The notes under the pieces: generated by a model
Told to the model about the DNA's origin: nothing
Database searches by the model: none
What the model saw: the letters and a program-made list of their open reading frames with translations, nothing else
Source: Chloroflexota bacterium
GTDB lineage: Bacteria; Chloroflexota; Anaerolineae; Aggregatilineales; J027
Length of the DNA stretch: 32,933 nucleotides
Assembly: GCA_022616515.1 (NCBI GenBank)
Contig: JAKEEQ010000500.1
Coordinates: 1 to 32,933 of the forward strand
Direction: 5' to 3'
Program-made: the position numbers and the translations under genes
In this document: one piece after another, positions 20,179 to 31,671 of the stretch
How the letters are laid out: every line of letters begins with the position of its first letter
Numbering within the stretch: the stretch's first letter is position 1

Positions 20179-20330
20179 TAACCCCACCTTGGCCCTCAAC
20201 CGCAAACGGGGAGGGAACCAGAATCATCACTCCCAACCACCGCTTGTTGTCAACGACTCGCTGCGACAAAACGCTTTATTCAAGCTGTGCCGATTCCTCC
20301 CTCGTTTGCGGGGAGAGACAGAGGGGGTAA
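20179..20330. repeat. MITE-like element with about 40-bp imperfect terminal inverted repeats
   Basis: Bases about 20179-20219 and about 20289-20330 are imperfect inverted copies of each other. The shared core is CCGCAAACG(G/A)GGGAGG flanked by an ACCCC tract at the outer end. The interior (about 20220-20288) has no coding signal. The arrangement suggests a small non-autonomous element or a long stem-loop RNA region at the end of the permease transcript. It directly abuts the 97-bp repeat that starts at 20331. Confidence 0.55.
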
Positions 20331-20427
20331 TACCAAGTTCGGGTAATCAGTAGAAGAAGAATTTTGGATACCGTGATTTCACAGGCAGCTTTACAATGGT
20401 ATATAGTCTAATCAGGTGAACTTGGTA
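20331..20427 (+). repeat. 97-bp MITE-like repeat, copy A (upstream of the J-domain gene)
   Basis: The copy begins TACCAAGTTCGGGTAATCAG and ends CTAATCAGGTGAACTTGGTA. The ends form imperfect inverted repeats of about 20 bases with TACCAAGTTC at each tip. The flanks are TAA on both sides, a possible target duplication. A reverse-complement relative of identical length lies at 22653-22749, with 75 of 97 positions matching by hand alignment. The copy ends 7 bases before the J-domain gene start. Confidence 0.8.
20377..20405 (+). promoter_or_regulatory. Promoter-like pair inside the MITE copy A, pointing at the J-domain gene
   Basis: TTTCAC (20377-20382) and TATATA (20400-20405) are separated by 17 bases. 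Transcription would start near 20412, giving a leader of only about 23 bases before the ATG at 20435. The same two hexamers with the same 17-base spacing occur in the other MITE copy, although the spacer between them is less conserved. No Shine-Dalgarno sequence is visible before the ATG. Confidence 0.35.
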
Positions 20428-20434
20428 TAAGATT

Positions 20435-22480
20435 ATGTTTGACCCAATTGATCTACTTAAACTATATGAAATTCTTGAAGTGGAAATTGGTTGCAGCGGT
20501 TTGGAATTACGGAAAGCCTATTTGCATTGCGCCAAAAAATATCATCCTGACAAGAATCCCGATAGAAAAGAATGGGCTACAACCAGATTCCAGCAAGTTC
20601 AGGATGCTTATTACAGGTTAAAAGAAATAGGGCAAACGAAACCGACCCAGAGAGCATCCCATTATTCAGAAACGAATCAGACTTTTGAAGATTTAGTTGA
20701 ACCATCTTCAAGATTTGAGTTTAGTGGTCGTGTCTTCCATATTAAGTTCAATTTTGATTATAAGCTTGACCTAGACGAACTTGCACAAAGAAGAAGAGGT
20801 CTACGTGAGGCTTGGAACGAATGGGTTGAAAGCCCGAACGATTTACAGACGTCCTTGAAGCTAATTCATGTAGCGCATCTATCATCCCGTCCAGATATTG
20901 TAGCGCAACTTTTGACCGAACCTATTCTTATAGATGCTGCATCATTACTTTTTCTCGAATTTGATACCACGCAAGTAACCGATACCCTACTGAGCTGGGC
21001 GGAATTCTTGTATGCTGGCAAACATACGGAAGCTGCCATAGAGTTACTAGAGGGAGCGTTATTTATTGAATTCGCAGATGAAAAAATCCGGGATCGTTTG
21101 CGGCAATATCATTACTGGATGACACAAAAGGATGGTAAGAAGAAAAACGTTGACCCCCGAATTAGAATATTTCACTATAAGAAAATTCTAGAGTTAGGTT
21201 TTGAACTGGATTACATATATAAACTCCTTGCGGAAGCTTACTATGAGCTAGATGAAATAGATACGGCAAAGGCACACCTTCAACATGCATATGAAATCAA
21301 CCACCTGTTAAGTGGAGCAAAAACAATATCACGTGCACTCGGAATGGAGAAATTTATTCCTGATGATACAGAAACTCAAGCAGATGTCTTTCCACCACCA
21401 AATGTTCGCAAAAACGATTATCTGGTAAACCATGTAAAACACATTCCAACTTTAGACGAGGCAATTTCGTGGTTTGACAACGAGGATTGGCAAACAATTG
21501 AAGTCTACTCGGACCTGAATGCATATTACCCTAAGATTCTCAATAAAGCTCGAAATGTCTTAGTTGAAATAGCTCGAAACCTCAGCCGATGTAATAAAGA
21601 TTTTGCACGCTATAACCTCATAACATTTTTAAATTGTGTTTACTGGGATGTCAGAGAGGCTGCAACAACTTCACTTGTCGAAATTGGCAACGCTGATACA
21701 CTTCATGCTCTTCAAAACTTCGAGCCAAATGAATACTGGAGACCGGGACGTGATGATAGAAACTTAGATCAATGTATAAAATTGCTCAAGGCAAAACTAA
21801 ACATTGATTCCAGGAAGTCCTCTGATGATGGAATAATTCACTATTCGTTGGAAGATCTTATTAGGGCGAAGAAGGAGGCATCATACTTCATGAAAACAAG
21901 AGATTATGTTTCTGCCTACAAAATCCTCTCGCCATTCGTTACGGATCACGGTCCGTATGATGAAAATCATCTAGATCTCATACTAATGTTTGCAATCTGT
22001 TTAAGTGAAACGCGCAATGCTAAGGCAGCACTTGAGCTGGTACAACCCTTGTATGAACATCTGCGAAACGATCACTCACAGTTCATACTGCCCAAAGTGT
22101 TGAATTGGTACCGACGTGTTTATCTTTATCACCCCTATATCTCCAAATATGACAATACATACCTGCAAATTCTTGAAACGTATGAAAAATATTTTGCAAT
22201 TGCTCAGGATCCCACAGAGTTTCTGGAAAATGTCGATGTATTAGCACTCTGGTTCGGGTTTTGGAATCAGTCTACACACGTCAAATGGCTGAACTATGCG
22301 ATTGCATATACGGCACCAGGATCAAGACTAGCTAAACGGAAATATCATCTACACGACACGAAAATCAGTCCGTTTCTTCAGAAGCAAATAGACATTTCCT
22401 TTCCAGCAATTCAGATCCTAACCCAACACAAAATATATGAACTTTTTGGGGTCGAGATATTTTTGGATTCATTCAATTAG
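20435..22480 (+). CDS. J-domain (DnaJ-like) protein with TPR/HEAT-like repeats, AT-rich
   Basis: A 681-residue protein. Residues 9-65 are a J domain with the HPD motif (His37-Pro38-Asp39 in KYHPDKNPD), the part that stimulates an Hsp70 ATPase. There is no glycine-rich region or zinc finger as in DnaJ. The remainder is helical: a TPR-like hairpin near 245-295 (YIYKLLAEAYYELDEIDTA), a HEAT-like segment near 395-425 (DVREAATTSLVEIGNADTLHAL) and more TPR-like helices near 465-550. The protein probably brings a client to Hsp70; the client is unknown. The gene is visibly richer in A and T than its neighbours and lies between two related 97-bp repeats. ATG 20435 must be the start because a stop codon (TGA 20417-20419) lies just upstream in frame. 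It has no ribosome site. Confidence 0.8.
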   Translation: MFDPIDLLKLYEILEVEIGCSGLELRKAYLHCAKKYHPDKNPDRKEWATTRFQQVQDAYYRLKEIGQTKPTQRASHYSETNQTFEDLVEPSSRFEFSGRVFHIKFNFDYKLDLDELAQRRRGLREAWNEWVESPNDLQTSLKLIHVAHLSSRPDIVAQLLTEPILIDAASLLFLEFDTTQVTDTLLSWAEFLYAGKHTEAAIELLEGALFIEFADEKIRDRLRQYHYWMTQKDGKKKNVDPRIRIFHYKKILELGFELDYIYKLLAEAYYELDEIDTAKAHLQHAYEINHLLSGAKTISRALGMEKFIPDDTETQADVFPPPNVRKNDYLVNHVKHIPTLDEAISWFDNEDWQTIEVYSDLNAYYPKILNKARNVLVEIARNLSRCNKDFARYNLITFLNCVYWDVREAATTSLVEIGNADTLHALQNFEPNEYWRPGRDDRNLDQCIKLLKAKLNIDSRKSSDDGIIHYSLEDLIRAKKEASYFMKTRDYVSAYKILSPFVTDHGPYDENHLDLILMFAICLSETRNAKAALELVQPLYEHLRNDHSQFILPKVLNWYRRVYLYHPYISKYDNTYLQILETYEKYFAIAQDPTEFLENVDVLALWFGFWNQSTHVKWLNYAIAYTAPGSRLAKRKYHLHDTKISPFLQKQIDISFPAIQILTQHKIYELFGVEIFLDSFN

Positions 22481-22482
22481 AG

Positions 22483-22517
22483 GCATAAATCATATTTTTC
22501 AGAAAAAATATTTATGC
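22483..22517 (+). terminator. AT-rich hairpin after the J-domain gene
   Basis: GCATAAAT (22483-22490) pairs with ATTTATGC (22510-22517), and the pairing can continue inward with TATTTTT/AAAAATA around a small bulge. It sits 2 bases after the stop codon. No strong T-run follows, so it may act as a weak terminator or as an mRNA-end stabiliser. Confidence 0.45.
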
Positions 22518-22652
22518 ATAAGTTGGAGGAAGGAGAATCACAGGGGACACACCTGCTAACTGCAATGTGAACAAAGAGGCTGATATCCAAAGCCTTGAAC
22601 TGTCCGCCCGGTTGATGGACCCGATTATCTACCATACTATTTGAGCCAGTCG

Positions 22653-22749
22653 TACCAAGTTCGTGTGATTAGGCTATATACCGTCTCAAAGATCGCTGTG
22701 AAATCGTGGCATCCAGAAATTTGATACTACTGATTATCCAAACTTGGTA
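22653..22749 (-). repeat. 97-bp MITE-like repeat, copy B (inverted relative to copy A)
   Basis: Read on the minus strand it begins TACCAAGTTTGGATAATCAG and ends CCTAATCACACGAACTTGGTA in the same order as copy A, with identical length and 75 of 97 matching positions. The tips TACCAAG/CTTGGTA are conserved, as are GATTTCACAG and GGTATATAG in the interior. It lies 172 bases after the stop codon of the J-domain gene. Confidence 0.8.
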
Positions 22750-22802
22750 TGAGTAGTGCTGCCTTTCAGAGACGTTCACGAACGGATTTCACATAGAACG
22801 TA

Positions 22803-25800
22803 TCATTTAAGCACAGCGCGAATGTCCGAAAGGTCGTCCAGATTAGTCTTGTCCAGTTCAAAAAGCTGCTGAAGTTTACTATCAAGCAAGCCACGATGTG
22901 AGGCGTACTCGCGGGCTTTAGCGTAGGCTTCCATGGCTTTTTCGGGTGAAGTGTCGCCGAGGAGATAGAGGCCAGAATAGGCAAGTCCGATGACGAACCA
23001 TGTCTGGTAACTACGCTCAAGGGTTTCGAGGACTTTATTGGAACGTTCGATGGCACGATTAAAGGCATTGCGGGCCGCCGATACATCCTTGTCGCGCAGG
23101 CAGGCTACGCCAAAAGCAGAGGCGGCACGATAGCCGTGCTCACTTTGCCCCAATGTGACCGCCGCCCGGTGTAACACGGTTCTTGCCTGATCAACGTTAT
23201 CGGCGGCGAGGTATGCCCAGCCCAGCGTCGTACTGTAGAGGCACTGCAAGTCTTCATCATTTATCTCGACGGCGATGTTATAGGCAGATTGGGCATAGTG
23301 GATGGCTTCTTTGGGTTTGCTGTAGCCGATGTAAATTCTGGCTAAATCGTAGAGACGGTTCGACTCGTTGCGGCGGTTACCCACTTCGCGCATGATGATC
23401 AGCGATCTGTGGTAATATTGTTCGGCGCTCTGCAATTCGCCCAAATCAAGCTGTGAGTCGCCAACTAAATCAAGGCAAATACCCTCTCCAACAATATCAC
23501 CGACATCCATGAATATCTTCAGGGCCTGCTGGTAGACGTCCAGTGCCTTCTCATACTGGTTATAGTTATGATAAGTCTGGCCGAGATTACGCAGTCCAAT
23601 GGCTTCACTGCGCCGGTTGCCGTTGGCGCGGAAAAGTTCCAGCGCATCCAGCCGGTAATTAACGGCGGGTTCAAACTGACCGATATCACTGTAAACACCG
23701 CCTAGATATTCAAGCGTGATGCCTTCAAAGCGTTGGTCGCCGATTTCGCGGGCCATGACAAGTCCCTGCTGTAGATACTCGATGGCCTGCTCCTGATCGC
23801 CCAATTCGCGATGAATGTCGCCAAGTTGACTGAGAGCGTTGGCTTCGGCGAGTTTGAAGTTAATCTTTCGGGAGAGTTCCAGTGCTTTCTCGAAGTAGTC
23901 ACGGGCTTCATCAGTCCGCCCCTGATTACGGGCAATGGAACCGAGTTGCAGCGTTGACTCGGTGAGGGCGGTTATGTTGTCCACTTTTTCCGCAAGTTCA
24001 ACCGTTGCTTTCAGAATAGGTTGGGCTTTTTCAAAATCCCCCATGTAACGATGGGCGGTTCCGATGCGACACATTAGTTCGGCGCGTTGGGCTTCGCTGG
24101 CATTATCAAGGGCCAGTTGCAAAAAGTGGATGGCCTCCGGGTAGACATTCATTTCAAGGGCTTTTTGGCCTGCAATGCGGGCATAGTGCCATTCTATTTC
24201 CTTTTCGCCCGCAAATCCCCAGTGCTCAGATAGTCTGGCAGCATATTCATCGGCATCGGGATAGGTGGCCTCAATTGCCAGTGCCATATGACGGTGCAGG
24301 TCTGCTAAGCTGTCCGCTGACAATTCCTGCAATGCCCCTTCGCGCAGCTTATCATGTGCAAAGCGCCAGTGCCCATCGCGAAACTCAATGACGGCAGCAT
24401 TGGAGGCACTGATGAGCCATTTATTTAGTTCGGGAGGATTGTCAAGCGTATCCATCATCTTTTCTAATATCTTCAGGTCAATATCACGACCACTAATCGC
24501 CGCCAGTTGCAGCAGCGGCTGGCCCCACGCTGGAACCTGAGCAAGACGGCGCTGCACAATGGCCTGCATGCCGCCGGTAAAAACGTTCAGTGGCAGGGTG
24601 TCGTGACCAACTTTGTCCAGCCGCCCTGCTTCTTCAGCCAGTGCCCGGACCACTTCGACGAGGAAGAAAATATTGCCCTCGGTCTGTTCCTTCAAAAACA
24701 GCAGGATTTGCCGGTTGTGTGCTCCTTCACCGAGCATGGAGAAGGCTAGTTGTTCAATTTCGGCTGGGGTAAGCCGTTCAAGTTGAATGAGGTTCATTTC
24801 AGGCAGGTGTTCAGGCAGGGATGGGCGTTCGTCATTGCGATAACTTGCCAGAATGAGCAGCGGGAAGTTTTGGACGGTGCGGACAAGACGCCGGAGCACT
24901 TCGAGGTCCTCGGATGCCCACTGCAAATCCTCCAAAATGAGGACGGTGGGCATCTGCTGAAGGTGAATAGTTGTTACAATGGTGTCGAGCACCGCCGTTC
25001 GCCCCGAAAAGGTCGTTTCCCCCGGTTCACGTTCCAGCAAGGGATAAATATCTGGCACAAGTTGAGAGAGAATATCCACTTGCTGGTCGGTCAGATCAAC
25101 CGTCAGGGCTAGATTGCGCACCGGCTGCCGCCAGAGTTGATAGGGCAGGCCGCTCCCTGCCACACTTTCCCCTACAAACACATTCGTGCCTTTGACCAGT
25201 GCCCGAACGCGAATTTCATCGAGCAGCCGGGTCTTTCCGACGCCGCTTTCGCCACCAATGAGCCATGCGCTGCCACGTCCAAGCCACGCTTCTTCGAGGG
25301 CGACTTCCAGTTTCGTCAATTCTTCTTCACGACCAACCAGTTCCGCTGCCTGTAAGAAACTCTCCCGAATGTCGTCCGTCTCTTCGGGGAGCGGCAAATC
25401 AAATGCCTGACTGAGGTCTCGAATGACATCGGAAGCGTGCTGATAACGCTGTTCAGGATCTTTAGCAAGTAACTTTTCCAGCACGGCAACCTGATTCCGC
25501 CCGAAATCCAGTTTATCGTATTCAGGTTCCATCATGCTAATTCGGTAAATCATCTCCATGATGTTCCCGGTCGGGTCGAAGGGGTGTTCACTGGCAAAGA
25601 GTTCGAAGGCCATCACGCCCACTGCAAACAGATCGGATGCAACGCTTGGTGGATTTTCTTCGAGGAGTTCAGGAGCCATGTAGGCGACTGTACCTACGGC
25701 TTCTTCAGGAACGGTGTTGTGATTGATAGCCAAGCCGAAATCGAGGATTTTGACGTGATTGTTTTCAACAAGGACATTGCCGGGCTTCAGGTCGCGGTGC

Positions 25801-26222
25801 AAGATGCCGCGATGATGCAAGTAGTCGAGGGCTTGCAGCATTTGTATGATGTAATTTATTTTCATCTCATCAGACTGAAAGCGGCTGGCCCCCACAATAC
25901 TGCGTGCCCGTTTCAATAATTCCATCGTGAAATAGGGCTGCTGCTCATCATCAAAGCCGTATTCGATGACACTGATGATATTGGGATGGCGCATTGAGGC
26001 GAGGGTTTGAAATTCATGGGCCAGCGCAATGCGTAAATCTTCATTATCGCCAGATGATTCAAAGACCAGATTTTCCAGCGGCGCAAATACGCGCTTCAAT
26101 GCCACAACCTCACCACGCAGCCGATCCAGAGCCTTATAAACCGCACCCATGCCGCCAATGCCAAGTTGTTCTTGAATCACATACCGCTGGGAGAAAAAAT
26201 CTTTTGTTTTTGTAATGGTCAT
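22803..26222 (-). CDS. Ser/Thr protein kinase - AAA/NTPase - TPR regulator (1139 aa)
   Basis: An N-terminal Hanks-type kinase (about 14-275) has the glycine loop LGIGGMGAVYKA, Lys43, catalytic ILHRDLKPGNV (Asp144), DFG 161-163 and GTVAYMAPELL. A linker carrying VGREEELTKLE leads into a STAND/AAA-like ATPase with Walker A GGESGVGKT (323-331) and Walker B VLILEDLQWA (about 427-436). The C-terminal part (about 700-1110) is a run of TPRs (for example DFEKAQPILKATVELAEK, RTDEARDYFEKALELSRK, DQEQAIEYLQQGLVMARE). All kinase residues are intact. Such proteins act as signal-integrating switches in large-genome bacteria, with TPRs sensing a partner. ATG 26222 is preceded by GGAG. A sigma70-like promoter at 26258-26286 lies in the short region shared with the divergent dnaE. 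No transmembrane segment is seen. Confidence 0.9.
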   Translation of the reverse strand: MTITKTKDFFSQRYVIQEQLGIGGMGAVYKALDRLRGEVVALKRVFAPLENLVFESSGDNEDLRIALAHEFQTLASMRHPNIISVIEYGFDDEQQPYFTMELLKRARSIVGASRFQSDEMKINYIIQMLQALDYLHHRGILHRDLKPGNVLVENNHVKILDFGLAINHNTVPEEAVGTVAYMAPELLEENPPSVASDLFAVGVMAFELFASEHPFDPTGNIMEMIYRISMMEPEYDKLDFGRNQVAVLEKLLAKDPEQRYQHASDVIRDLSQAFDLPLPEETDDIRESFLQAAELVGREEELTKLEVALEEAWLGRGSAWLIGGESGVGKTRLLDEIRVRALVKGTNVFVGESVAGSGLPYQLWRQPVRNLALTVDLTDQQVDILSQLVPDIYPLLEREPGETTFSGRTAVLDTIVTTIHLQQMPTVLILEDLQWASEDLEVLRRLVRTVQNFPLLILASYRNDERPSLPEHLPEMNLIQLERLTPAEIEQLAFSMLGEGAHNRQILLFLKEQTEGNIFFLVEVVRALAEEAGRLDKVGHDTLPLNVFTGGMQAIVQRRLAQVPAWGQPLLQLAAISGRDIDLKILEKMMDTLDNPPELNKWLISASNAAVIEFRDGHWRFAHDKLREGALQELSADSLADLHRHMALAIEATYPDADEYAARLSEHWGFAGEKEIEWHYARIAGQKALEMNVYPEAIHFLQLALDNASEAQRAELMCRIGTAHRYMGDFEKAQPILKATVELAEKVDNITALTESTLQLGSIARNQGRTDEARDYFEKALELSRKINFKLAEANALSQLGDIHRELGDQEQAIEYLQQGLVMAREIGDQRFEGITLEYLGGVYSDIGQFEPAVNYRLDALELFRANGNRRSEAIGLRNLGQTYHNYNQYEKALDVYQQALKIFMDVGDIVGEGICLDLVGDSQLDLGELQSAEQYYHRSLIIMREVGNRRNESNRLYDLARIYIGYSKPKEAIHYAQSAYNIAVEINDEDLQCLYSTTLGWAYLAADNVDQARTVLHRAAVTLGQSEHGYRAASAFGVACLRDKDVSAARNAFNRAIERSNKVLETLERSYQTWFVIGLAYSGLYLLGDTSPEKAMEAYAKAREYASHRGLLDSKLQQLFELDKTNLDDLSDIRAVLK

Positions 26223-26257
26223 TGAGGCTCCATTATCCGTCGCTGCGCTTCCATTTA

Positions 26258-26286
26258 ATTATCACCAGCGATTTGACTTGCGTCAA
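26258..26286 (-). promoter_or_regulatory. Sigma70-like promoter of the kinase-ATPase-TPR gene
   Basis: On the minus strand TTGACG (26286-26281) and GATAAT (26263-26258) are separated by exactly 17 bases, a close match to the -35/-10 consensus. The -35 box overlaps the palindrome at 26271-26288. Confidence 0.6.
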
Positions 26287-26288
26287 AT
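26271..26288. promoter_or_regulatory. 18-bp palindrome (operator-like) between the kinase gene and dnaE
   Basis: ATTTGAC-TTGC-GTCAAAT is a perfect inverted repeat with 7-base arms and a 4-base centre. It covers the -35 box of the minus-strand promoter and lies about 26 bases upstream of the dnaE -10 box, so a dimeric regulator bound here could affect both genes. The regulator is unknown. Confidence 0.5.
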
Positions 26289-26310
26289 GATTAAATTTCG
26301 TGACCGGGTG

Positions 26311-26319
26311 TGTTATACT
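26311..26319 (+). promoter_or_regulatory. Extended -10 promoter element of dnaE
   Basis: TGTTATACT contains a TATACT -10 box (26314-26319) preceded by TGn. No good -35 hexamer lies 16-18 bases upstream, as is common for extended -10 promoters. The proposed dnaE start (26356) lies 36 bases downstream. Confidence 0.45.
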
Positions 26320-26355
26320 CCAATTAAATATCAGCCTCGAAACAAAGCCCAAAAA

Positions 26356-29300
26356 ATGCACACACATAACCATGCTCATGATAAGGACTTTGTGCATCTA
26401 CATTTGCACACTGAATATAGTCTTCTTGATGGATTTGCTCAGATAAAGCAGGTCGTCAATCGCGCAGTTGACCTCAATATGGAGGCACTTGCCATCACAG
26501 ATCACGGCACGATGTTTGGCGTGATTGACTTCTATCGTGCCTGTAAGGCAGCGGGTATCAAGCCGATTATCGGTGTTGAAGCTTACCTCGCCCGGCGCAG
26601 CATGCGTGACCGCGACCCGGTCAAAGACCGCACCCCCTACCATCTGCTGCTGCTGGCTAAAAATGAAGCGGGTTACAAAAACCTGCTCAAGATTGCGTCG
26701 GCTTCTCAATTGGACGGGTACTATTACCGTCCGCGCATCGACAAAGAGTTTCTGGCGGCCCATGCGGAGGGGATTGTTGCCACCAGTGGCTGCCTCGCGG
26801 CGGAAATCCCGCGTATGGTGGAGGAGGGCCGCGATGACGAGGCCCTGCAAACTATCGGATGGTATCAGGACGTTTTCGGGAAAGATAATTTTTTTCTCGA
26901 ACTCCAGCAACATGACATTTCCGAACTGGAACGCCTCAACAAATGGCTGCTGGAAAATCGTCACCACGCCAATGTGCCGCTGGTTGCCACAAATGATGTG
27001 CATTATGTGAATCAAGATGACTACGACGTACATGATACCCTGCTGTGTATCCAGACGAGTTCGTTAAAGCGGGAAAGTAAAACCAGTCGACTGGCGATGA
27101 CCGACCCGTCGTACCATCTGCGGTCACAGCACGAAATGTGGCAAATATTCGGTGATGTTGCGCCAGAAGCCCTGTATAACACACGGCTTATCACCGAGAT
27201 GTGTGATATTCATGAATTAGATGGCGAGGGTTATCACCTGCCGATTTTCCCTGTGCCAGAGCGATTCGATAACCCGGAGCAGTATTTACGCTATCTGTGT
27301 GAGCGCGGTATTGAGTGGCGCTATGGCAGCCGGGCCAGTTCGAAGCCGATTCAGGACAGGCTTGAGCATGAACTCAATATCATTTTCAAGATGGGCTTTG
27401 CCACCTATTTCCTCATCGTATGGGACCTGATTGAGTTTGCCCGTAGTGCCGACATCTGGTGGAATGTGCGTGGATCGGGTGCAGGCAGTGTGGTGGCCTA
27501 TTCGCTCGGTATCACCAGTCTGGACCCGCTGGAAAACGCCTTGATTTTCGAGCGGTTTTTGAATCCACATCGTAAGACCATGCCAGACTTTGACCTCGAC
27601 TTCCCCGAAGACCGCCGTCAGGAGATGATTGAATACTGCGCCCGCAAATATGGGGAAGACAAAGTCGCGGCGATTATCACGTTTGGAACTCTAAAACCCA
27701 AAGCAGCTATCCGCGATGTGGGGCGTGCCCTCGATTTGCCGCTGCCGGAAGTGAACCGGATTGCCAAGATGGTTCCAACGGTGGCAAGGCCGCCCTCGAT
27801 TGACCAGCTTCTGGGCAAAGATGAGAGCAAGCCCGACGCGATGAATCCAGAAATGGTTGAGTTGTATGAAAAAGACCGCTTTGCACGTGATGTTCTGAAT
27901 TACGCGGCACGGGTCGAAGGGGTGCCACGTCATGCCGGAACGCATGCGGCGGGTATTATTGTGTCTGACAAACCGCTTGTCGAATATCTTCCGCTGCATC
28001 GCCCGACCGGCAGCAGTGCTGAAGATGCCCCGGTGAAGCAAATCACGCAGTTCCCGATGGAAACGGCAGAAAGTATTGGCCTGCTGAAAATCGACTTCCT
28101 CGGATTGTCTACCTTAACCATCATGCGACGTGCCTGCGAGTTGATCGAGCAGCATCACGGCATCAAATATGACATGTCAAACATTCCCTACCAGCCGGAC
28201 CCGGAAAACTCGGACATAACACGGATGGTTAAGGAGATGTTTGAGATGATGGGACGTGGCGAGACCATCGGTGTCTTCCAGCTTGAAAGCAGCGGGATGC
28301 GGCAGATGTTGCTGGGGATGCGACCCCAAACGTTTGAGCATATCATCGCGGCTATTTCGCTGTTTCGCCCCGGCCCGATGCAGTTCATCCCCCAGTTTAA
28401 CGCCCGTTTGCATGGCGAAGAGACCGTCGAATACCGGCACCCGCTTCTTGAGCCTATCTTGCAAGAAACTTATGGAATTTGCATCAGCGGCGATTCGCTA
28501 ATTTTGGACACGCGAACTGGACAGCGTTACCGCGTCGATCAAATCGCCCAAGTTACTAACCCGATCTATGTGCAAGGTATTGACGAGAACTACCATCCGG
28601 TTGCCAGCCGTGTCACGCATTTGATCTACAACGGTGACAAGCCCGTTTTTCGCGTTACTTTGAAAAATGGAGCGACTATCAAAACGACGCACGATCACCG
28701 CTTTTTGACTGAAACAGGATGGAAACCCCTCAGCGAGATACAACCGGGTGATTATGTTGCCACACCGCCACAGCTAATCGAGCCGGAAGAACACCAGTTA
28801 TTTGATCGTGATAAGTTACGTGTACTGGCTTATCTCATCGCTGACGGCAGTTTGGCGAGTGGAAGTTCCGTTGATTTTGTCAATAAAGAGCAATCGCTGA
28901 TCAATGAATATGTTCGATGCCTGAAGTCTTTTGATGATCTAAAACCTGTTTATACTGGACAAATCCATGATGTTCTACGAGTAGGTGTTCGCAGTGCCCG
29001 CTACAAAGAAGTCAATAGCCTCTTGGTCTGGATGCGCGAATTGGGATTTAAATACCCGCCAGGGATAAGAAAACACCCTTGCGGAGTTCGGAGTCAGGAA
29101 AAATCAATCCCTGATTTTGTATTTTCACTTAATAATGAGAATATGATCTATTTTCTCGCATCACTCTGGGACTGTGACGGTTACATTGGGGAGGAGTCGT
29201 GTCATTACAAGACAATCTCACCGCAGCTTGCGTATGATGTTCAAACGTTGTTGTTACGTTTGGGGATCAGTTCAACTATCTACACATCAAGTTATCACGC

Positions 29301-31671
29301 ACGTGGCGAAGCACGAACCGCGTATCAGGTCACAACTTACGACACGATGCGCCTAACAGAAATGCTTTTCCCTTACATGTTAACTCAAAAACGAGAAGTG
29401 GCATGTATGGGTCATGGTCGAAATACGATCAATCGCACGATTTTTATAGAAGAAGTACGTCAAAAAACAGATATGTCTGCCCGGCAGCTTATGGCAAGCT
29501 ATGGCATTGATCGGCAACATTTATATCTAAATGGTTTATCGAGACCGCGTATTACCGCAGATGTGGTTGAGTCCATCGCGGAAGCCATGCCTTTACCCCG
29601 AACGGAAGCGTTAATCAATCTGAGATGGGTGGAGATTGCCTCAATTGACCCGTCAGGCGTTGAGGCCGTTTACGATCTGACTGTCGAAGGGAATCACCAT
29701 AATTTCGTTGCCAACAATATCATTGTTCACAACTGCGCGTATCAAGAGCAGATTATGCAGATTGCGATGGACCTGTTCGGCTATGACGCTGGTGAGGCAG
29801 ACTTGATGCGCCGCGCAGTGTCCAAGAAGAAGGAAAAGGACCTCGCCAAGCATCGCGGCATCTTCCTTGAACGCGGTCCACAAAACGGCGTTGATGAGGA
29901 AGCTGCCGGGAAGATTTTTGACGACATCGAATATTTTGCCAATTATGGCTTTAATAAGTCGCATGCCGCCGATTACGCCGTCATCACCTGCCAGACGGCT
30001 TTTCTGAAATGCCACTATCCCCACGAATATATGACGGCGCTGATGTCCATCCATAAAGATGACACCGACAAAATCAGCATCTTTGTGGCGGATGCAAAGC
30101 GAATGGGCATTGATATTTTGCCCCCCAACATCAATAAATCTTCCTCAGACTTCGATATTGAAGCCGACGACAATGGTCAGCGACATATCCGGTTTGGATT
30201 GGGGGCAATCAAGAATCTTGGTCTCGGCGCAGTCGATTACATCATTGGGGAACGCGAAACCTCAGGGCCGTTTAAAAACCTCGATGACTTCCTCGACCGC
30301 TGTTCTGCCAGCGACATCGGTAAACGCGGACTTGAATCGGCAATCAAGGTGGGGGCATTCGATGAATTCGGGAACCGACCAACCCTGCTGCATAACATTG
30401 ACAAGCTCGTTAAACACAGTGTCGAGCGCCACAAGGCCGCTGAAGTAGGACAGGTGAGCATGTTCGACATCCTCGGCGGGTCGGGTGGCGATAACAGCGC
30501 GACCTCGATTGTGAATGTGCTTGAAGCGCCGCCCAATCCTGCTGACAAGCGGGAGCAACTGCGCTGGGAAAAGGAACTGGTGGGGATGTATGTCACCGAC
30601 CATCCGCTTGAGATGATTATGGACAAGTTGGATAAGATCATTACCCACAACTCGCATGAAATCCGCGAGGCGGGTGCTGTCCTTAATAGCCAGTCAGTGA
30701 TCATTGCAGGGTTAGTCACAAGTATACGTACCATCATCACCAAAAACGGTGATTCGATGGCAATCCTGCAAGTCGAGGATATTGGCGGCAAAATCGAGTG
30801 CGTGATGTTCCCGCGAATATGGGGGACTTTCCGTGATCTGGTAGAGGAAGATCGCGTATTGGTGATTCGCGGTAAAGCTGAGGACCGCCAGAGTGAGATG
30901 CAAATTATCGTAGACAGTGTCTCGCAAAATTTTGATGTGGCCTACAGCGAAGAACTGGAGGAACTGCGCCAGTCGAATTTTTCGTGGCTGCCACAAAATG
31001 ACAGTGATCCGGTAAACAATCGCTTTTTCGAAGACATTCCAACCTACATTGATGATGGCCTGGACGACGATGAGGATGATGACGAAGCCGAAGAGGATGA
31101 CATCATTGAAGATGGTGACTCTGTGGAAATCGACGATGTGGAAGCGCCGCCTGAAACCGTTGCTGAAGCGGTCGTTGTGCCTGCTGCTCCGGTACCTGAA
31201 GAAATGGAAGACGAACTGGTTCAAGACATCGAGGTGATCGTCACTGAAGAGGCTGATTATCCGGTGTCACCGCCAAAAGATGAACTGTATGAGCCAGTAG
31301 ACGATTATGAGTCGTATACCACCGAGCAACCAGTAAACGGACACGATTCATTGGTGGATGCTGCTGGCCGGTTGATTGCGCCGCCCGCCCCGGCGGCGGT
31401 TCCGCGCAAAGTGACGACTCGCCAGCAATTGGTGGTTACGCTGTATCGTTCGGGAGATGATGAACGTGATTATCGCCTGCTGCGCTGGATTTACAGTGCG
31501 GCGATGGCCTATCCGGGTGGAGATGAGCTGCGGGTGTATGCACAGTTTCCCGGTCAAGAAGACCGGCTCACGATGGATTTTCCTGATTTGACGATTCTGG
31601 TATGCGAGGCGCTGATTAACAAGTTGAAAGAGCGCCTCGGTGAAAATTGTGTGATGATCCGTAACCTGTAA
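26356..31671 (+). CDS. dnaE: DNA polymerase III alpha subunit with an in-frame intein
   Basis: A 1771-residue precursor, about 1353 residues after removal of the 418-residue intein. It has an N-terminal PHP domain (HLHLHTEYSLLDG, AITDHGTMFGVIDF, TSGCLAAEIPRM), and the C-family polymerase core with NVRGSGAGSVVAYSLGI and PDFDLDF (catalytic Asp411, Asp413 and Asp415 region). RFGLGAIKNLG and a C-terminal OB fold (VIIAGLVTSIRTIITKNGD) follow. The intein interrupts TYGI-CAYQEQIM. After the OB fold comes an acidic low-complexity linker (about 31050-31370, DDDEDDDEAEEDD) and a final folded segment. The frame opens at 26215 inside the divergent kinase gene; ATG 26356 is preferred as the family's normal start, although no ribosome site is visible. 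A terminator hairpin overlaps its stop codon. It replicates the chromosome. Confidence 0.95.
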   Translation: MHTHNHAHDKDFVHLHLHTEYSLLDGFAQIKQVVNRAVDLNMEALAITDHGTMFGVIDFYRACKAAGIKPIIGVEAYLARRSMRDRDPVKDRTPYHLLLLAKNEAGYKNLLKIASASQLDGYYYRPRIDKEFLAAHAEGIVATSGCLAAEIPRMVEEGRDDEALQTIGWYQDVFGKDNFFLELQQHDISELERLNKWLLENRHHANVPLVATNDVHYVNQDDYDVHDTLLCIQTSSLKRESKTSRLAMTDPSYHLRSQHEMWQIFGDVAPEALYNTRLITEMCDIHELDGEGYHLPIFPVPERFDNPEQYLRYLCERGIEWRYGSRASSKPIQDRLEHELNIIFKMGFATYFLIVWDLIEFARSADIWWNVRGSGAGSVVAYSLGITSLDPLENALIFERFLNPHRKTMPDFDLDFPEDRRQEMIEYCARKYGEDKVAAIITFGTLKPKAAIRDVGRALDLPLPEVNRIAKMVPTVARPPSIDQLLGKDESKPDAMNPEMVELYEKDRFARDVLNYAARVEGVPRHAGTHAAGIIVSDKPLVEYLPLHRPTGSSAEDAPVKQITQFPMETAESIGLLKIDFLGLSTLTIMRRACELIEQHHGIKYDMSNIPYQPDPENSDITRMVKEMFEMMGRGETIGVFQLESSGMRQMLLGMRPQTFEHIIAAISLFRPGPMQFIPQFNARLHGEETVEYRHPLLEPILQETYGICISGDSLILDTRTGQRYRVDQIAQVTNPIYVQGIDENYHPVASRVTHLIYNGDKPVFRVTLKNGATIKTTHDHRFLTETGWKPLSEIQPGDYVATPPQLIEPEEHQLFDRDKLRVLAYLIADGSLASGSSVDFVNKEQSLINEYVRCLKSFDDLKPVYTGQIHDVLRVGVRSARYKEVNSLLVWMRELGFKYPPGIRKHPCGVRSQEKSIPDFVFSLNNENMIYFLASLWDCDGYIGEESCHYKTISPQLAYDVQTLLLRLGISSTIYTSSYHARGEARTAYQVTTYDTMRLTEMLFPYMLTQKREVACMGHGRNTINRTIFIEEVRQKTDMSARQLMASYGIDRQHLYLNGLSRPRITADVVESIAEAMPLPRTEALINLRWVEIASIDPSGVEAVYDLTVEGNHHNFVANNIIVHNCAYQEQIMQIAMDLFGYDAGEADLMRRAVSKKKEKDLAKHRGIFLERGPQNGVDEEAAGKIFDDIEYFANYGFNKSHAADYAVITCQTAFLKCHYPHEYMTALMSIHKDDTDKISIFVADAKRMGIDILPPNINKSSSDFDIEADDNGQRHIRFGLGAIKNLGLGAVDYIIGERETSGPFKNLDDFLDRCSASDIGKRGLESAIKVGAFDEFGNRPTLLHNIDKLVKHSVERHKAAEVGQVSMFDILGGSGGDNSATSIVNVLEAPPNPADKREQLRWEKELVGMYVTDHPLEMIMDKLDKIITHNSHEIREAGAVLNSQSVIIAGLVTSIRTIITKNGDSMAILQVEDIGGKIECVMFPRIWGTFRDLVEEDRVLVIRGKAEDRQSEMQIIVDSVSQNFDVAYSEELEELRQSNFSWLPQNDSDPVNNRFFEDIPTYIDDGLDDDEDDDEAEEDDIIEDGDSVEIDDVEAPPETVAEAVVVPAAPVPEEMEDELVQDIEVIVTEEADYPVSPPKDELYEPVDDYESYTTEQPVNGHDSLVDAAGRLIAPPAPAAVPRKVTTRQQLVVTLYRSGDDERDYRLLRWIYSAAMAYPGGDELRVYAQFPGQEDRLTMDFPDLTILVCEALINKLKERLGENCVMIRNL
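28480..29733 (+). other. Intein in DnaE with LAGLIDADG homing endonuclease and an HTH-like insert
   Basis: The 418-residue insertion begins at Cys1 (CISGDSLILD, block A), has the block B motif TTHDH (Thr70, His73) and ends VYDLTVEGNHHNFVANNIIV-HN (blocks F and G), followed by +1 Cys. This is a standard class 1 splicing arrangement. Endonuclease motifs are LAYLIADGSL (Asp122) and LASLWDCDGYIG (Asp233); both acidic residues are retained, so homing activity is possible. Between the endonuclease and block F there is a segment like an HTH (MSARQLMASYGIDRQHLYLNG, about 29470-29560). Splicing would restore YGI-CAYQEQ in the polymerase core, so DnaE function depends on it. Confidence 0.93.

What the first reader, a model, noticed from the sequence alone, without database searches (positions are those of the whole stretch)
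20331..22749. Two related 97-bp MITE-like repeats in opposite orientation bracket an AT-rich J-domain gene
Copies at 20331-20427 (plus) and 22653-22749 (minus) have exactly the same length, TACCAAG tips and 75 of 97 identical positions. They bracket only the 681-aa J-domain gene, which is AT-richer than its neighbours. The unit has the shape of a non-autonomous, MITE-bracketed transposon with a cargo gene, or of two independent insertions beside a foreign gene. No transposase lies inside. The 77% identity argues that the two copies are not from one recent event.
Basis: partly seen in the sequence, partly recalled or inferred. Interest (0 to 1): 0.65.

Follow-up and report, generated by a model that had tools for sequence, protein, structure and literature searches.

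The report
Two MITE insertions beside an orphan gene
The two 97-bp repeats are separate insertions of a small parasitic DNA element moved by an IS630-type transposase, sitting on either side of a probably acquired orphan gene; the pair does not look like a transposon that carried the gene, so the arrangement is mostly ordinary.

Summary
The repeats are real: 20331-20427 (+) and 22653-22749 (-), 97 bp each, 75/97 identical, bracketing one 681-aa J-domain gene with 39% GC (neighbours 50-53%). They are MITEs. Relatives with the same ends occur at three more places in this genome and in dozens of copies in a sister genus. There a full-size insertion sequence with matching ends abuts an IS630-type transposase (DDE_3). 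The family makes a 3-bp TNA target duplication: 35 of 45 full-length elements have identical TNA flanks, against 2 of 45 in a control. Natural empty sites of related IS630 elements on plasmids confirm three bases. This settles the main question fairly well. Copy A has its own duplication (TAA/TAA), and the outer flanks of the pair disagree (TAA/TGA), so the A-J-B block does not look like one transposed unit. Close MITE pairs around ordinary genes are also common in the sister genus. Beyond its J domain the gene is an ORFan: no match in 399 other genomes of the phylum, phages, plasmids or IMG/VR. Its GC supports foreign origin, but nothing ties that to the MITEs. Copy A lies 7 bp before the start codon. 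No empty site for the window itself was found.

The parts
20328..20330 (.). left target-site duplication of copy A (TAA)
   Evidence: identical to 20428-20430
20331..20427 (+). MITE copy A, 97 bp, tips TACCAAGTTCGGGTAATCAG / CTAATCAGGTGAACTTGGTA
20428..20430 (.). right target-site duplication of copy A (TAA)
20378..20407 (+). weak sigma-70-like promoter match inside copy A (TTCACA-18-TATAGT), pointing into the J gene; speculative
   Evidence: 1 found, 0.4 expected by chance
20435..22480 (+). 681-aa J-domain (DnaJ) gene with an ORFan, probably alpha-solenoid C-terminal part; low GC
22650..22652 (.). left flank of copy B (TCG), not matching its right flank
22653..22749 (-). MITE copy B, 97 bp, 77% identical to A, inverted
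22750..22752 (.). right flank of copy B (TGA); differs from the outer flank of A (TAA)

Best explanation
The two repeats are non-autonomous miniature elements (MITEs) of a family whose full-size partner is an IS630-type insertion sequence of an ISAva6-like clade. The transposase, acting in trans, recognises the TACCAAGTT-type ends and inserts the element at a TNA site, duplicating those three bases. A and B arrived as separate insertions in the two intergenic spaces beside a low-GC, probably horizontally acquired J-domain gene. They did not carry it in as a composite transposon. Shown: the repeat structure, the dispersed family, the matching ends next to an IS630-type transposase in a sister genus, the TNA duplications, and A's own TAA duplication. 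Inferred: that this transposase moved the window copies, that B is an old insertion whose duplication has decayed, that the J gene is foreign, and that A, only 7 bp before the start codon, now supplies the gene's leader and perhaps its promoter.
For: Own genome: three further relatives, C262 (153 bp, both ends, TGA/TGA), C102 and C470. Sister genus: 97 ends in G009, 24 in G004, 13 in G006, 9 in G007 and 4 in G008; reversed-pattern controls 0-2 per genome. Full-length elements: 35 of 45 flanked by identical TNA, control 2 of 45. Full-size IS: the end in G008, G006 and G004 abuts an ORF with PF13358 DDE_3, 54.7 bits against cut-off 28.6. Three left ends in G006 (TCA, TGA, TTA) and three right ends (TGA, TTA, TCA) form one matching set. 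Related plasmid IS630 elements (Trichormus ISAva6, Stanieria, Deinococcus, Methylocystis, two Thermus) all have identical TNA flanks. Natural empty sites: Nostoc mobV (350 of 350 bp, one piece) and a Deinococcus integrase (359 of 359, one piece) align without net gap to the flanks joined over one TNA copy. Window: A TAA/TAA; outer flanks TAA/TGA. Seven close MITE pairs in G009 against about 2 expected, lying around ordinary genes.
Against: B lacks a matching duplication (TCG/TGA). A three-base duplication carries little information, and one change (TAA to TGA) would reconcile the outer flanks with a composite. With only about five family members in 6.79 Mb, a pair within 2.3 kb has a chance of about 0.7% under uniform placement. 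No intact partner IS with TACCAAG ends was found in this 81%-complete assembly. The only continuous transposase-plus-end copy (G008) is itself degraded.
Confidence: 0.78

Rival explanations
1. Composite element: A and B act as the two ends of one transposable unit that carried the J gene here, mobilised in trans by an IS630-type transposase; the mismatch of the outer flanks is a later mutation.
For: Inverted orientation with matching outer ends, a single low-GC ORFan cargo gene, no second such gene, and few other family members in the assembly. MITE-bounded cargo units are documented elsewhere: PMC10969869 reviews MITE-flanked integrons and resistance genes, and the abstracts of PMC13367494 and PMC4133298 concern TIME composites.
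Against: A has its own perfect TAA duplication and the outer flanks differ, TAA/TGA. A and B are 23% diverged. Family members elsewhere carry individual duplications (35 of 45). Close pairs around genes occur in G009 without sign of composite movement. No second location of the block was found.
Confidence: 0.1
2. The repeats came in together with the J gene as passengers of a larger horizontally transferred DNA segment from a MITE-rich relative, neither moving the gene nor inserting here independently.
For: Low GC runs from about 20320 to 22540 and the full-length 97-bp form is known only here.
Against: The spacer between the J gene and B rises to about 0.5 GC. The family also exists at three other sites of this genome. 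No donor was found.
Confidence: 0.1
3. The repeats are structural RNA or terminator/attenuator elements serving the J gene rather than mobile elements.
For: Both can fold into hairpins and sit directly at the 5' and 3' sides of the gene.
Against: No Rfam match, no intrinsic terminator in either copy, and a dispersed family with target duplications.
Confidence: 0.02

Closest known systems
IS630 family (IS630/Tc1/mariner group), ISAva6-like members of Trichormus, Thermus and Deinococcus plasmids
   Same: Ends with TA-starting inverted repeats; related DDE_3 transposase (about 43-50% identity); same TNA flanks in all six examples with recognisable ends.
   Different: IS630 and ISY100 are described as duplicating TA only (PMC2170065). 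The clade examined here duplicates three bases, TNA, with TA as the element's own tip. The window copies have no coding capacity.
Bacterial MITEs (Correia, Nezha, MITEAba12 and others; review PMC10969869)
   Same: Short, no ORF, inverted ends, target duplication, dispersed, partner IS in trans, often next to gene starts and possibly promoter-bearing.
   Different: Different ends and partner IS; no sequence relation was tested.
MITE- or TIME-bounded composite units (PMC10969869, PMC13367494, PMC4133298)
   Same: Two related MITEs flank a cargo gene.
   Different: No shared outer duplication, no second location, diverged copies; one copy has its own duplication.

Membership tests
MITE (non-autonomous IS derivative) | short, non-coding, terminal inverted repeats | tested here: met
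   97 bp, tips 9-10 of 10 complementary, no ORF of note
MITE (non-autonomous IS derivative) | dispersed copies | tested here: met
   relatives at 3 more sites in own genome; many in sister genus
MITE (non-autonomous IS derivative) | target-site duplication | tested here: met
   A TAA/TAA; family 35 of 45; not met for copy B (TCG/TGA)
MITE (non-autonomous IS derivative) | shares ends with an autonomous element | tested here: met
   20 of 24 bases of A's left end match the IS end beside the DDE_3 ORF in the sister genus; no such IS found in own assembly
IS630 family as classically defined (for the partner IS) | 2-bp TA target duplication | tested here: not met
   The duplication is 3 bp, TNA, confirmed by two natural empty sites of related IS; assignment to IS630 rests on the transposase (DDE_3; database names), so it is called IS630-type here
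IS630 family as classically defined (for the partner IS) | DDE_3 transposase | tested here: met
   PF13358 54.7 bits for the partner IS; plasmid relatives annotated IS630
MITE composite transposon | common target duplication at the outer ends | tested here: not met
   TAA against TGA
MITE composite transposon | empty site or second location of the whole unit | tested here: inconclusive
   no relative shares the flanking junction; no second J gene found

The most novel reading that the evidence does not exclude
The A-J-B block is a real cargo unit: an ORFan J-domain gene moved by an IS630-type transposase acting on two flanking MITEs, in a clade of IS630 elements that duplicates TNA rather than TA.
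Probability: 0.1. Interest if true: 0.55.

Novelty: new member of a known kind. Interest (0 to 1): 0.3.

Why it matters
It identifies an apparently undescribed MITE family with its likely partner IS, and shows how target duplications can tell a true composite from two neighbouring insertions. The 3-bp TNA duplication in an IS630-type clade is a small but testable departure from the TA rule; whether ISfinder already records it could not be checked. If copy A drives the J gene, it is one more case of a MITE rewiring a gene.

Tried and rejected
TA as the target duplication (my first reading): rejected when the three bases outside the TA tips matched in 35 of 45 elements and empty sites closed over one TNA. 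Viral-contig matches to the paired-tip pattern (20): chance, none scored by the repeat model. The single genome-collection match (Alkalinema) and the G009:C21 match: chance tips, the latter in conserved sequence shared with G007 and G008. Empty site for the window: the permease orthologues are followed by other genes, and the kinase is one of a large paralogue set, so no orthologous junction exists. Structure of the J protein without an alignment: mean pLDDT 41, only an all-helical outline. Rfam: nothing. PADLOC: no defence family for the J protein. Own-genome DDE_3 transposases lack TACCAAG ends. Empty site of a Thermus copy: none found. Papers: no report of this repeat or of TNA duplication in IS630 found in the library searched, which is incomplete.

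Full report
Observation. The two repeats are exactly as described: 97 bp each, 75 of 97 identical, opposite orientation, inverted tips TACCAAGTT/AACTTGGTA. The only gene between them is a 681-aa ORF with an N-terminal DnaJ domain, GC 39.4% and GC3 0.355, against 0.50-0.54 and 0.55-0.65 for the other genes checked. Copy A ends 7 bp before the ATG.

The family. In the window's own genome (6.79 Mb, 564 contigs, 81% complete) only these two copies have both ends at this spacing. A sequence model adds three relatives: C262 (153 bp, both ends, different middle), C102 and C470 (one end each). Among 150 relatives the strict end pattern is rare. A looser one finds 97 ends in G009, 24 in G004, 13 in G006, 9 in G007 and 4 in G008, all one sister genus, with 0-2 control matches per genome. 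The pattern is essentially absent from the GTDB contig collection: one match, in a cyanobacterial contig, judged chance. Viral-contig matches are chance.

The partner. In G004, G006 and G008 the same type of end is followed by the C-terminus of an ORF that matches DDE_3, PF13358, at 54.7 bits. Opposite ends in G006 and G004 start a transposase-like ORF. The two halves were not seen on one contig, because the assemblies break in the repeated element; the one longer copy, in G008, is degraded. Plasmid relatives are annotated as IS630, including ISAva6. The three DDE_3 genes of the window's genome do not have these ends.

Target duplication. Taking TACC...GGTA as the element, 35 of 45 full-length elements have identical 3-bp flanks, all TNA, against 2 of 45 for the next three bases. 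The G006 IS ends show the same set on both sides: TCA, TGA, TTA. Six related plasmid IS also have identical TNA flanks. For two of these, natural uninterrupted sequences align in one piece of equal length to the flanks joined over a single TNA: Nostoc mobV, 350 for 350 bp, and a Deinococcus wulumuqiensis integrase, 359 for 359. This fixes the duplication at three bases for this clade, where IS630 and ISY100 are reported to duplicate TA (PMC2170065).

Application to the window. A has TAA on both sides and is therefore a complete single insertion. B has TCG/TGA, so its duplication is lost or never matched. The outer flanks, left of A and right of B, are TAA and TGA, which does not support one transposition of the whole block. 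The information in three bases is small, so this is good but not final evidence.

Is bracketing special? In G009, 82 elements give 7 pairs within 2.5 kb, against about 2 expected under uniform placement (rough, because the assembly is fragmented). Such pairs lie around ordinary genes: a phosphodiesterase-like gene, MerR-like and DinB-like genes, a sulfurtransferase-like gene (names from reading the translations). In the window's genome a pair this close among five elements has a chance of about 0.7% if placement were uniform; with clustering it is less surprising.

The J gene. Only its J domain (residues about 10-80) matches other genomes of the order. The remaining 593 residues have no match in 399 other genomes of the phylum, phages or plasmids or IMG/VR. 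A weak TPR match and an all-helical low-confidence model suggest an alpha-solenoid partner-binding region. Low GC and no orthologue suggest acquisition, though a fast-evolving native gene is not excluded. Relatives do not share the junction, so an empty-site test was impossible.

Effect of A. Removing A and one TAA in thought leaves GAGGGGGTAAGATTATG, so A lies between a purine-rich run and the start codon. The new leader holds a weak promoter-like match (1 found, 0.4 expected). This is inference, not evidence of expression.

Noticed in passing
L220-L224, L228, L229 and sister-genus loci: An ISAva6-like clade of IS630-type elements makes a 3-bp TNA target duplication (six of six plasmid IS with recognisable ends, two natural empty sites), not the TA reported for IS630 and ISY100.
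   Followed up: yes
sister-genus MITEs (e.g. L159, L163, L165-L175) and G000 C262 (L046:3762-3914): MITEs with the same ends carry quite different middle modules (ACAATGGGTTTAAACCCATTGT, CCCTTCCC-rich, GTAGGGGTAGGG, GGAGGTCGCTTGCGGCCTCC), as if cores were exchanged between fixed ends.
   Followed up: partly
20185-20330: Just upstream of copy A lies another imperfect GC-rich inverted repeat (CTCAACCGCAAACGGGGAGGG ... CCTCCCTCGTTTGCGGGGAGAG) of a style also seen inside sister-genus MITEs.
   Followed up: no
26215-31671: The DNA polymerase III alpha gene carries an intein at about residues 755-1190.
   Followed up: no
947-2150: A TnpB (IS200/IS605-type) gene is split into two ORFs, 947-1468 and 1533-2150, probably a decayed copy.
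   Followed up: no
22803-26222: The neighbouring Ser/Thr kinase-AAA-TPR protein is one of a strongly expanded set: 28 matching stretches in this genome at E below 1e-60, against 2-16 in 13 relatives.
   Followed up: no
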